Positions 17,806 to 29,698 of a stretch of DNA of 64,000 bases are shown one piece after another (position 1 is the first letter of the stretch; each line of letters opens with the position of its first letter). The DNA comes from Devosia sp. 66-22 (GTDB taxonomy: Bacteria; Pseudomonadota; Alphaproteobacteria; Rhizobiales; Devosiaceae): contig MKUZ01000030.1 of the NCBI GenBank assembly GCA_001899065.1, forward strand, positions 79,521 through 143,520, written 5' to 3'. The notes under the pieces are model-generated. The model was not told the DNA's origin. It saw only the letters and a program-made list of their open reading frames with translations, and did not search any database. Position numbers and translations under genes: made by a program.

Positions 17806-19818
17806 TCAATCTGCCGCCCAGTGGCCGTACATGATGGGCATCGTGCCCACGAGGGATTTGAACCGGTCCCAGCTCTTGCGCTCGGGCACGGTCCAGCCGG
17901 ACTCGGCGATGGCCGACAGGCGGGGGAAGACCAGCCGGTCGAAGATCGCCCGGTCGGTCATGCTCTCCGACCAGATGCAGGCCTGGATGCCCAGGAGGTG
18001 CTTGAGGCCTGCTTCCGACATGCCGGCGCGGCTCTCGAACTCGTACGTTTCCTGCGGTCCGGACCAGCCGGCCCAGCCGGCGCCGGGCTCGGCCCAGGCC
18101 TGGCCATTGGCCATGTCGAGATAATAGCGCTGCCCCGGCGAGACGACGATGTCGTAGCCCCGCTCGGCGAGCGCGGCGTTCACCTCGACATTGCGCCAGC
18201 CGATGACGAAGGAGCTGTCCTTGTCGACCGCATCGCCATGCGCCGCCTCTTCCCAGCCGCCCGTGACGGCGCCCTTCTTCTTGATGATCTCGTGCACGCG
18301 GCGGATGAACGCCGCCTGGATCAGCGCCGTCGGCGAGCCCTCGATCTCGTCGGCGCCATGGTGATTGCCGAGCTGGTTGAACTGCTTCTCGTGCTTGCGG
18401 CGCATCTCCGGACCGCCCAGCTTCTCGATCATGTCGAGCGCCAGCGGCGAGCCCGACCACGCCGCCAGCGGCACCTCGTCGGCGCCGATGTGGAAGATCC
18501 CGGCGGGGAACAGCTCGAGCATCTCGCCGATCACCGTCTCGACGAATTCGTAGACCGGCTCATGCGCCGGATTGAGGCTGTTGTTGGGGAAGCCCTGCAC
18601 CGATTGGTATTCGCCCGTCTCGTTGGGATCGCGCAGATGCGGCAGCGCCTGCAGCGCCGCGTAGAAATGCCCCGGCATGTCGATCTCGGGGATGACCGTC
18701 ACGGCGAGGCTGTCGGCGAGGGCGACGATCTCGCGGATCACCGCCTTCGAGTAGTACCCGCCCGTCGGCTGCGGCCCCGAGCCCAGCAGCGGCGGCAGCG
18801 CCTTACCGTGGCCACGCCAGGCGCCGATCTCCGTCAGCGCCGGATAGGCGTCGATCTCGACGCGCCACGCCTCGTCCTCCGACAGGTGCCAGTGGAACCT
18901 GTTGAGCTTGTTCCACGCCAGCAGCTTGATCAGCCGGCCGACTTCGGCGCCCGAATAGAACTGCCGCGCCACGTCGAGATGGCAGCCGCGATAGACGAAG
19001 CCGGGCTCGTCCGTGATGGTGCCGCCGGTGGGGAACACGAAGGTCTGCGGATACTGCCGCGCGCCGCGCAGGATCTGGCCGAGCGTGACGAGCCCGTAGA
19101 ACATGCCCTGCCGCGTGCTCGCCTCGATGGTCGCCGCATTTTCGGCAAAGCTCAGCTCATAGGCCTCGGCGCCCATGCCCGCCTTGTGGCGGATGGCGAC
19201 GGGCATGCCCGCTTCCGACGCCGGGCGGACAATTCCTTCCACCGCGAACAGGTCGGCGACGAGGCCGGCAAACGCCGCCGCCGCCTTGCCGGCATCCGCG
19301 CCCTCCGGCCTCAAATCGAGGCCGGGAGGCGCCGTGCGCGCGCCCGTCGTCGCGACCGCCTTGGGCCAGGGGATGATCGACACCGCGACCGCGGCTTTCG
19401 CCGGCACCGGGAACTTCGCGGCGCCCTTGAGCAGCGGCGAATTGTGCCCCTTTGCCTGCGTGGGCGCGGTCGGCAGCGTGACAATGCTGCCATCGGCGAG
19501 CGCCACATAGCTCGAATTGGCGCCGTCGCTCCAGTGCCGCAGGCCATAGGACAGGCCGCGGGCGACCGACCGCCAGGTCTGGCCCGGCTCGAGCACGTAG
19601 CCGTCCGGCGGCGCGATCAGCGTGTGGTTGGAGAGCCGCTTGAGCAGCTTGCCGTTCTCCAGCGTCGCATGCGGATCGATCCGCGCGGGACCCGAGAAGC
19701 CGAGCTGGAAATTGCTGATGGGCGCGTCGCCCTCATTGGTCAGCTCGATGCCGTAGCCGAGCGGCTGGCCATCGGCCGCCGGGGTCCAGGTCGTCACGAG
19801 CGAAAGCTTGGGATGCAT
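17806..19818 (-). CDS. Cytoplasmic beta-N-acetylhexosaminidase (GH20)
   Basis: 670 aa without signal peptide. An N-terminal domain of about 150 residues precedes the GH20 TIM barrel: GFVYRGCHLDVARQFYS at 273-289, FHWHLSEDEAW at 308-318, IPEIDMPGH at 376-384 and the catalytic pair D447-E448 in HIGADEVP. It should release GlcNAc from imported chitooligosaccharides inside the cell. Domain layout and lack of export match the cytoplasmic GlcNAcase of the Vibrio chitobiose operon (VC0613). Last gene of the minus-strand operon starting at 26112. Confidence 0.93.
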   Translation of the reverse strand: MHPKLSLVTTWTPAADGQPLGYGIELTNEGDAPISNFQLGFSGPARIDPHATLENGKLLKRLSNHTLIAPPDGYVLEPGQTWRSVARGLSYGLRHWSDGANSSYVALADGSIVTLPTAPTQAKGHNSPLLKGAAKFPVPAKAAVAVSIIPWPKAVATTGARTAPPGLDLRPEGADAGKAAAAFAGLVADLFAVEGIVRPASEAGMPVAIRHKAGMGAEAYELSFAENAATIEASTRQGMFYGLVTLGQILRGARQYPQTFVFPTGGTITDEPGFVYRGCHLDVARQFYSGAEVGRLIKLLAWNKLNRFHWHLSEDEAWRVEIDAYPALTEIGAWRGHGKALPPLLGSGPQPTGGYYSKAVIREIVALADSLAVTVIPEIDMPGHFYAALQALPHLRDPNETGEYQSVQGFPNNSLNPAHEPVYEFVETVIGEMLELFPAGIFHIGADEVPLAAWSGSPLALDMIEKLGGPEMRRKHEKQFNQLGNHHGADEIEGSPTALIQAAFIRRVHEIIKKKGAVTGGWEEAAHGDAVDKDSSFVIGWRNVEVNAALAERGYDIVVSPGQRYYLDMANGQAWAEPGAGWAGWSGPQETYEFESRAGMSEAGLKHLLGIQACIWSESMTDRAIFDRLVFPRLSAIAESGWTVPERKSWDRFKSLVGTMPIMYGHWAAD

Positions 19819-19843
19819 GATTCTCTCTGTTCTGAAGGGGTAA

Positions 19844-29300: not shown

Positions 29301-29698
29301 TCATCGGTGCGGTCGGCCACGCCCCCATCGAGGGTCCCACCGAGTTCGATGCCCGTCTCTACCGCCAGACCATCGTCGACGTCATGACCGACAGCCTGCG
29401 CATCTGGCGGTCGGCCACCGGCAAGTCGAAGTTCGAGCTGGCCGAGGAGAGCGGCGTCTGGCGCGTCAGCCTCGACCGCTCCTCGCTGCAGACGCGGACG
29501 CTCGACAAATACCTCCTCCTGCAGACGCTCCCTGCCTATCCGCGCTGGCGGGACGTGGTGAGCACCGGCGAATTCGTCCTCGCGACAACCGAGTCCGGCG
29601 CCCCCGAAGCGGCGGCGAGCCTCGTCGGCAGGCTCGAGGTTCTGCGGCGCCTGGTCTCGATGTCCATGGAGCAGGGCAAGACCGTGCCCAGCCATTGA
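26348..29698 (+). CDS. chiS: ChiS-like hybrid sensor histidine kinase
   Basis: 1116 aa. TTG start at 26348, 10 nt after GGAGG; no in-frame ATG is nearby. Order: membrane span about 10-31, periplasmic sensor about 32-340, second span about 344-365, HAMP, coiled coil about 417-450, HisKA with H458 in SHELRTPLNG, ATPase domain (N box NLIGNAIKYTG, G box GSGLGLTIARQ), receiver from about 707 with phospho-Asp D756 in LDVMMP, a PAS-like segment about 845-960, and a final conserved segment about 990-1105. Length, order and C-terminal segment match Vibrio ChiS, a hybrid kinase that binds DNA through its C-terminus and is controlled by periplasmic CBP. It diverges from a CBP-like operon, the expected partner. 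Confidence 0.82.
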   Translation: MKWPTDFRGRLFLIFSGVMAIPLLLTLWTVVSSLTGGVRDDTLGQLQFIRDAKQAEVDQYLTFSLRQAESLTTSSALRYSIGDFYGFSYAFRMIDPSGDAAQRVLQVAFSAQERTEAVERGRAGGTLLREAPEYANAHDRFHEDFLTFIKTSEFDNLYLVNRDGRVVYSVAKDAYIGADVGGTLSSTPLGQLTRDVLNGTSDARILVLDFTRDPVTRSFSAYVGIRINLHGRTRGLAIFRLPAEAVGEVVQGQSGSGAPAKLFLTSSHGALISGPPDAALVPGDERLATISGLPGHASDFLDVGSDGKPALAAWTSIPYGDVGWHLTAEMPAQKAFAKTDALTRFVALLAAASLPLIFVIALLLSRKISASLGKLADAAEALADGALDVDVPKIARPDELARLTSSFSRMRTAIRDQLTLIGQKNQELEQQVSVIADKNAELEEADRQKDAFVANTSHELRTPLNGIIGISGTLASGAAGELTSLQRGQLELITFSARRLSRLVDDLLDLYRIRQGKMRLAIQPVYLPASIRNVLLVAQGMAWGEPVNIKVESGDDVPYVEADPVRLEQILYNLIGNAIKYTGNGSVCVGVARRGDEVEISISDSGGGISADNLERVFQPLERASGDEVEGSGLGLTIARQLAHAMNGRLTATSELGKGSVFSLVLPIAAEGADIEVMEDDLEQHGDIYGLVAAPAAFYVADEGAPHLLVVDDEPVNLQVLCNVLKPLGYRVETARNGKEALEAVARARPDLVILDVMMPVLSGLEVARKLRERHAVHELPIIMLTARSRTRDLVAGFESGANDYICKPFVKEELLARISTLLAASSARSRAQENETLRQEIDRRVRVEDALRLSQQRMSRLLDTVSVGVVCTSEAGRITYANQTAARLAGRPLTPGESGMDDLVPQRLTATIRDSLETSGQFDLADIPFGAPEQAVIIHGFELEPQAGGGLAMIIDQNTPVGRDRAGTVNRSIRDVLDTMDTRVIGAVGHAPIEGPTEFDARLYRQTIVDVMTDSLRIWRSATGKSKFELAEESGVWRVSLDRSSLQTRTLDKYLLLQTLPAYPRWRDVVSTGEFVLATTESGAPEAAASLVGRLEVLRRLVSMSMEQGKTVPSH

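What the first reader, a model, noticed from the sequence alone, without database searches (positions are those of the whole stretch)
17806..29698. Alphaproteobacterial counterpart of the Vibrio chitobiose operon with its ChiS-CBP sensor pair
A family 5 SBP, two permeases, two ATPases and a cytoplasmic GH20 form one minus-strand operon, divergent from a 1116-aa hybrid kinase. In Vibrio cholerae, CBP (VC0620), the ABC genes and GH20 (VC0613) lie beside ChiS (VC0622), and ligand-free CBP keeps ChiS silent. The same gene set and kinase architecture here suggest the periplasmic-SBP-gated kinase system exists in alphaproteobacteria. Sequence shows the parts; the CBP-ChiS interaction is inference.
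Basis: partly seen in the sequence, partly recalled or inferred. Interest (0 to 1): 0.82.

Follow-up and report, generated by a model that had tools for sequence, protein, structure and literature searches.

The report
Chitobiose sensor-transporter locus in Devosia
A bacterium that appears to be a Devosia carries the same kind of chitin-sugar uptake operon and DNA-binding membrane sensor that controls chitin use in Vibrio, with matching candidate DNA sites in its promoter, and some other alphaproteobacteria have what looks like the same switch with the kinase part missing.

Summary
The finding holds. The SBP matches the solved chitin-oligosaccharide-binding protein 1zty at E 1.5e-161 (first other group 4e-52). 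The 1116-aa kinase has the ChiS domain order and ends in a ChiS-type DNA-binding domain: its only PDB match at E<=0.001 is V. cholerae ChiS (7kpo), and all five R/K residues reported as essential for DNA binding are kept. In 289 alphaproteobacterial genomes this domain and CBP occur in the same 8, at one locus each (one pair split by a contig break). The same clades recur in CBP and sensor trees. Additions: (1) the CBP-ChiS intergenic region holds two tandem 16-bp boxes 21 bp apart, with one other exact match in the 4.36-Mb genome; a matrix from Vibrio-type loci puts the best site of the locus in the promoter zone in 27 of 39 alpha and 15 of 20 gamma full-length loci. (2) In Azospirillaceae and some other alphas the CBP operon sits by a ~500-aa ChiS with sensor and DNA-binding domain but no detectable kinase or receiver. 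No GH18 chitinase was found in the genome, so it may scavenge soluble chitobiose. Ligand binding, CBP-ChiS contact, DNA binding and direction of regulation are inferred, not shown.

The parts
26348..29698 (+). ChiS-type hybrid kinase: TM, dCache-like periplasmic domain, TM, HAMP 363-416, HisKA (H458), HATPase, receiver (D756), PAS, ChiS DNA-binding domain 1004-1092
29357..29623 (+). ChiS-family DNA-binding domain (aa 1004-1092); R1044, R1050, K1054, R1066, R1068 match V. cholerae R1068, R1074, K1078, R1090, R1092
24448..26112 (-). CBP ortholog, predicted chitooligosaccharide-binding SBP
26214..26229 (-). predicted ChiS box 1, TTTTACGATTTTGCCG
26235..26250 (-). predicted ChiS box 2, TTTGCCGATTTTTCCG, 21 bp from box 1
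   Evidence: below the listing threshold of the gamma-trained matrix
23405..24394 (-). ABC permease 1
22493..23401 (-). ABC permease 2
21690..22511 (-). ABC ATPase 1
20752..21723 (-). ABC ATPase 2
19844..20971 (-). nucleotidyltransferase-fold protein, role unknown (ORF overlaps ATPase 2; real start probably near 20710, by eye)
   Evidence: matches also in Devosia loci L094 and L102
17806..19818 (-). GH20 beta-N-acetylhexosaminidase, no signal peptide seen by eye

Best explanation
This is an orthologous CBP-ABC-ChiS system that senses, imports and cleaves chitobiose. Proposed mechanism: soluble (GlcNAc)2 is bound by CBP in the periplasm. Ligand-free CBP holds the dCache-like domain of the membrane kinase in the off state; ligand-bound CBP releases or activates it. 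The signal passes through TM2 and HAMP to the kinase/receiver and the C-terminal DNA-binding domain, which binds two 16-bp boxes in the divergent promoter and turns on cbp-ABC-GH20. GH20 then cleaves chitobiose in the cytoplasm. Shown here: homology of the parts, conserved DNA-contact and phosphotransfer residues, co-occurrence and largely shared history of CBP and sensor, and conserved boxes. Inferred: ligand, CBP-ChiS contact, DNA binding, direction of regulation, place of GH20.
For: CBP match E 1.5e-161. Of nine VhCBP ligand residues tested, six are identical in the window CBP and W513 is Tyr. ChiS DNA-binding domain with 5 of 5 critical residues. Sensor homologous to Vibrio-type sensors. 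CBP and DNA-binding domain in the same 8 of 289 alpha genomes, at one locus each with gaps up to 3.8 kb. Among 61 genomes of the relatives set, the domain in a 1119-1224-aa frame occurs in exactly the 7 with the CBP ortholog (window's own or 60-61% identical); of the 10 with only 35-50% CBP paralogs, 9 lack the domain and one (G303) has a remnant. Same clades recur in both trees. H458, D712, D713, D756, T786, K808 invariant in 67 of 67 full-length rows. Boxes.
Against: No experiment. VhCBP N409 and F411 are Ser and Thr here, and the kept R436/F437 pair is also present in six of the seven unlinked paralogs, so it does not discriminate. No CBP column separates ChiS-linked from unlinked CBPs, so no candidate contact site was found. 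12 of 80 CBP loci show no DNA-binding domain in the stretch held; 5 of these have 8.9 kb or more upstream of CBP. The best box lay outside the promoter zone in 17 of 59 full-length and 3 of 8 kinase-less loci, and one of seven paralog promoters (L048) also scored. The published CBS sequence could not be read.
Confidence: 0.86

Rival explanations
1. Same parts, but CBP only transports: the kinase senses a different small ligand in its dCache pocket and CBP linkage reflects shared regulation, not contact.
For: The sensor model resembles dCache domains, among them DctB and PctA solved with small ligands. No CBP columns specific to ChiS-linked copies were found. In V. cholerae a chimera with the ChiS transmembrane and periplasmic parts replaced by those of Mlp37 still works at Pchb (PMC11856585, passages).
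Against: In V. cholerae deletion of CBP alone activates ChiS (PMC10208484, passages). ChiS tracks the CBP ortholog and not CBP paralogs of the same transporter type.
Confidence: 0.12
2. The binding protein serves a different oligosaccharide and the system is a ChiS-type switch with changed specificity.
For: N409S and F411T relative to VhCBP; no GH18 found in the genome.
Against: W363, D365, R436, F437 kept, Tyr at 513, and GH20 in the operon. PMC8449061 (passages) attributes GlcNAc specificity mainly to R436 and F437, though unlinked paralogs share them.
Confidence: 0.1
3. Unrelated hybrid kinase placed by chance beside an oligopeptide-type transporter.
For: None beyond generic HK/receiver matches, all below NCBIfam cut-offs among the 25 shown.
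Against: ChiS DNA-binding domain, linkage in many genera and recurring clades.
Confidence: 0.01

Closest known systems
Vibrio cholerae ChiS / CBP / chb system (VC0622, VC0620-VC0611; locus tags recalled)
   Same: Domain order, DNA-binding domain with all five critical residues, CBP and ABC genes; candidate box pair upstream of cbp in 4 of 5 Vibrio-type (f212) loci looked at
   Different: Divergent layout, against same-strand in the f212 loci; operon carries GH20 and a nucleotidyltransferase and no GH9 or GH94 (Vibrio cargo recalled); box pattern has 3 exact matches in the genome, while ChIP in V. cholerae shows peaks at Pchb, PtfoR, VC2217 and VC2487
ChiS-family DNA-binding-domain proteins with other architectures (PMC8092284)
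   Same: C-terminal ChiS-type domain
   Different: None of the eight examined (L082-L089, five genomes) matches the ChiS sensor; one (L084) has kinase and receiver, seven have neither by BLAST. None of the five genomes has CBP at E 1e-60
Kinase-less, CBP-linked ChiS in Niveispirillum, Nitrospirillum and others (described here)
   Same: Sensor, DNA-binding domain, CBP-ABC, similar boxes
   Different: No HAMP, HisKA, HATPase, receiver or PAS in the 5 of 8 scanned with Pfam, no kinase or receiver match in all 8 by BLAST; a low-confidence, probably disordered linker instead

Membership tests
ChiS | C-terminal ChiS DNA-binding domain | tested here: met
   7kpo, E 2.2e-25, only PDB match at E<=0.001
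ChiS | Five R/K residues required for DNA binding | tested here: met
   5 of 5
ChiS | HK-receiver-PAS-DNA-binding order | tested here: met
   order from the Fig. 1 legend of PMC8092284
ChiS | Homologous periplasmic sensor between two TM helices | tested here: met
   78-92 bits, 23-25% identity, to nine Vibrio-type proteins; TM by hydropathy
ChiS | Linked to cbp-ABC genes | tested here: met
ChiS | Two binding sites in the chb promoter | tested here: inconclusive
   two boxes predicted; published CBS sequence not available
ChiS | Repression by CBP, relief by chitin oligosaccharide | not testable with these tools
   needs genetics
CBP (Vibrio chitooligosaccharide-binding protein) | Closest to CBP over other solved SBPs | tested here: met
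   E 1.5e-161 against 4.4e-52 for the next group
CBP (Vibrio chitooligosaccharide-binding protein) | (GlcNAc)2-binding residues | tested here: inconclusive
   6 of 9 tested identical, W513Y; N409 and F411 changed; Glu10 not scored
CBP (Vibrio chitooligosaccharide-binding protein) | Binding of (GlcNAc)2 | not testable with these tools
   needs calorimetry
V. cholerae chb operon | GH9 and chitobiose phosphorylase cargo (recalled) | tested here: not met
   not among the operon genes scanned; GH20 present; rest of the genome not searched for them

The most novel reading that the evidence does not exclude
In Azospirillaceae and some other alphas the same CBP-gated switch works without any phosphorelay: a ~500-aa membrane protein joins the ChiS sensor, by a flexible linker, directly to the ChiS DNA-binding domain. 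If so, the core of ChiS signalling is SBP to sensor to DNA, and kinase and receiver are a removable tuning layer, lost once or twice.
Probability: 0.55. Interest if true: 0.75.

Novelty: new member of a known kind. Interest (0 to 1): 0.6.

Why it matters
ChiS is a membrane-bound hybrid kinase that itself binds DNA; the experimental papers on it seen here work in Vibrio. A Devosia with one main predicted target promoter is a simpler place to ask how a binding protein gates it. The kinase-less relatives are natural deletions that make the role of phosphorylation directly testable. The box gives a concrete operator to test.

Tried and rejected
Rejected: generic hybrid kinase. Rejected: mini-ChiS as a frameshift artefact; sensor, linker and DNA-binding domain lie in one open frame in all 8 named loci. 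Led nowhere: CBP columns specific to ChiS-linked copies, 0 found; sigma-70 promoter scan of 26050-26400, 0 found; published CBS sequence; GH19 search, uninformative because no control genome rang. A regex for the receiver Asp seemed to fail in 17 of 60 full-length frames; alignment showed the Asp in all 67 rows compared.

Full report
Observation. A nucleotidyltransferase-fold ORF (19844-20971, minus) lies between the second ATPase and GH20 and was not listed. The minus-strand genes from 26112 down to 17806 are closely packed; the kinase starts at 26348 on the plus strand.

Identity of the SBP. Against PDB sequences the SBP matches 1zty ('Chitin Oligosaccharide Binding Protein'; from V. cholerae, recalled) at E 1.5e-161; eight further chains score alike (E 5.6e-162 to 5e-159). 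The next solved group scores 4.4e-52. From passages of PMC8449061 nine VhCBP ligand residues were mapped: N204, S221, W363, D365, R436 and F437 are identical in the window protein, W513 is Tyr, N409 is Ser, F411 is Thr; Glu10 was not scored. Of seven CBP paralogs without a linked ChiS, six have Ser at position 513. But the same six keep R436 and F437, so that pair does not tell the two groups apart.

Identity of the kinase. Domain order: dCache_1 142-327 (below Pfam cut-off), HAMP, HisKA, HATPase, receiver, PAS. The last 132 aa have one PDB match at E<=0.001, 7kpo, titled as the V. cholerae ChiS DNA-binding domain. The five residues reported as essential (PMC8092284, three of its five parts read) are all kept: R1044, R1050, K1054, R1066, R1068. 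The sensor model, made from 57 of 69 available rows, has pLDDT 89 and pTM 0.84; its best PDB matches are sensor domains such as DctB and PctA (dCache type, recalled), with TM-scores by query length of 0.34-0.51 among the 50 listed. By BLAST the sensor matches those of nine Vibrio-type ChiS proteins at 78-92 bits, 23-25% identity.

Association. In 289 alphaproteobacterial genomes CBP (E 1e-100 or better) is found in 8 and the DNA-binding domain in 8: the same 8, from six families. In each the two lie at one locus: adjacent in the window, 1.0-1.9 kb apart in five, 3.8 kb apart beyond the ABC genes in G247, and in G147 the regulator lies beside a CBP fragment at a contig end. Two of the eight are full-length kinases (G000, G211); six lack the kinase. 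In the window's 61-genome relatives set, 7 genomes have the CBP ortholog (the window's own or 60-61% identical), and all 7 have the domain in a 1119-1224-aa frame. Ten have only 35-50% CBP paralogs; 9 of these lack the domain and G303 has a 194-aa remnant. In G303 the remnant abuts a truncated GH20 80% identical to the window's, as a deletion would leave it (inference). In 398 genomes of the phylum 15 have the domain: the window's own; nine of f212, of which 8 have CBP within the stretch fetched and one (G568) has CBP elsewhere; and five others, whose eight domain-bearing proteins do not match the ChiS sensor. None of those five has CBP at E 1e-60. One of the eight proteins (L084) does have kinase and receiver, and a distant family-5 SBP (23% identity to the window CBP) divergent from it.

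Named loci. 60 of 80 have a DNA-binding-domain protein with kinase (one, L161, cut by a contig end), 8 have one without, 12 have none in the stretch held. Of those 12, six have less than 1.7 kb and one 3.9 kb upstream of the CBP frame; five (L122, L158, L160, L163, L171; four of them Aeromonas) have 8.9 kb or more and count against universal linkage. Full-length forms occur in Devosia, Pelagibacterium, Maritalea, Cucumibacter, Nitratireductor, Rhizobium leucaenae, Rhodobacteraceae, Pannonibacter and several gammaproteobacteria. The window genus is Devosia by inference: lengths of two contigs from same-genus handles equal those of named Devosia records.

Kinase-less form. Five of the eight named cases were scanned with Pfam: none has HisKA, HATPase, receiver, HAMP or PAS at E 0.1. 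All eight lack BLAST matches to the window's kinase and receiver but match its sensor at 72-102 bits. Two loci looked at also carry a TonB receptor and a GH3 enzyme. The model of one (pLDDT 74, pTM 0.56, so modest) shows sensor, low-confidence linker (320-377) and a domain whose best PDB match is 7kpo. In the family of G175, which holds Niveispirillum (Azospirillaceae), 14 of 79 genomes have the domain; 13 frames are 502-691 aa, judged kinase-less by length only, and one is cut by a contig end.

Trees. Quick trees (SH-aLRT only) were made from hand-picked rows: 41 CBP and 37 sensor sequences. Many clades recur in both, such as window with L094 and L098, Maritalea with Cucumibacter, and Nitratireductor with Pannonibacter and Rhodobacteraceae; the deep order is not the same or not well supported. 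In both, the minis other than L125 group with the full-length G211 protein (support 96-97), which points to kinase loss. L125 sits on a long branch and may be a second loss.

Residues. In all 67 full-length rows compared the phosphotransfer residues are invariant. V. cholerae position 1068 is R or K in all 68 domains of the named CBP loci, but D, E or G in 7 of 8 of the other architectures; the exception is L084.

Boxes. De novo motif search upstream of CBP was run separately on chosen rows: 22 alpha full-length (window included), 8 mini, 14 gamma. All three gave two CG cores 9 bp apart in mostly A/T sequence, with scores above three shuffled sets each; the shuffled runs had half as many starts and related rows inflate the scores. 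A stricter pattern, drawn up after seeing these, occurs in 16 of 22 alpha, 3 of 8 mini, 9 of 14 gamma and 0 of 7 paralog upstream regions; the window has two boxes 21 bp apart, and 4 of 5 f212 promoters have two 30 bp apart. In the 64-kb window that pattern has one further match, at 36313. A matrix from gamma sites exceeds the 95% shuffle level in 21 of 22 alpha, 7 of 8 mini (three of the mini cases marginal on their own) and 1 of 7 paralog promoters. With a matrix from six f212 loci only, the best site of the whole locus falls in the promoter zone in 42 of 59 full-length loci and in 5 of 8 mini loci; the zone is 3.4% and 4.7% of the DNA, L161 was left out, and near relatives were not thinned. 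By my count of that list this is 27 of 39 alpha and 15 of 20 others; L132, titled Hyphomicrobiales but with layout and match values like the Osedax symbionts, is counted with the others. In the window the gamma matrix picks box 1 as best of 64 kb; box 2 is below its listing threshold. A consensus pattern, drawn partly from the window, has 3 exact matches in the 4.36-Mb genome, two being these boxes. With one mismatch allowed it finds only these two in the window, against 0.22 expected; 2 of 100 shuffles reached two.

Physiology. No GH18 chitinase was found in the genome, a search that rang in 6 of 14 control genomes; the GH19 search is uninformative. With GH20 lacking a visible signal peptide, uptake and internal cleavage of soluble chitobiose made by others is the likely role (inference).

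Mechanism. In V. cholerae CBP represses ChiS without chitin and its deletion activates ChiS (PMC10208484, passages); chitin-bound CBP is said to activate ChiS, likely by direct contact (PMC11856585, passages). The same gating is the best reading here, but nothing here shows contact.

Prior work. PMC8092284 reports the domain in diverse proteobacterial proteins, 3,242 of 3,829 being ChiS homologs and 587 of other architectures, so alpha and kinase-less members may be in its data set, which could not be read. Searches of the held library (titles and abstract beginnings, some lists capped) showed no paper on a CBP-linked ChiS in alphaproteobacteria or on a CBP-linked kinase-less ChiS. The library lacks most subscription papers, including the 2020 ChiS paper.

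Noticed in passing
window 19844-20971: Nucleotidyltransferase-fold ORF inside the chitobiose operon, also matched in two other Devosia loci (L094, L102); role unknown.
   Followed up: partly
G000:C17:168020-169642 and G000:C14:70210-71871 (L044, L045): Two CBP paralogs (48% and 39%) with permeases and ATPases and no ChiS domain within about 9 kb.
   Followed up: partly
L177:7845-9880: Relic in a same-genus genome (G303): truncated GH20 beside a bare ChiS DNA-binding domain, CBP-ABC and most of the kinase missing between them.
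   Followed up: partly
window 12699-17240: Oligopeptide-type ABC ATPases, SelA-like PLP enzyme and IclR regulator on the plus strand.
   Followed up: no
window 17242-17781 and 29743-31372: DUF411 protein below GH20; RidA-like protein and a beta-lactamase-fold serine hydrolase beyond the kinase.
   Followed up: no
L084:4467-8403: In genome G496 a 677-aa kinase-receiver-ChiS-domain protein without the ChiS sensor stands divergent from a distant family-5 SBP (23% to the window CBP); alone among eight unlinked domains it keeps Arg at position 1068.
   Followed up: no
L082-L089: ChiS-domain proteins without the ChiS sensor; seven of eight have D, E or G in place of the basic residue at position 1068.
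   Followed up: partly
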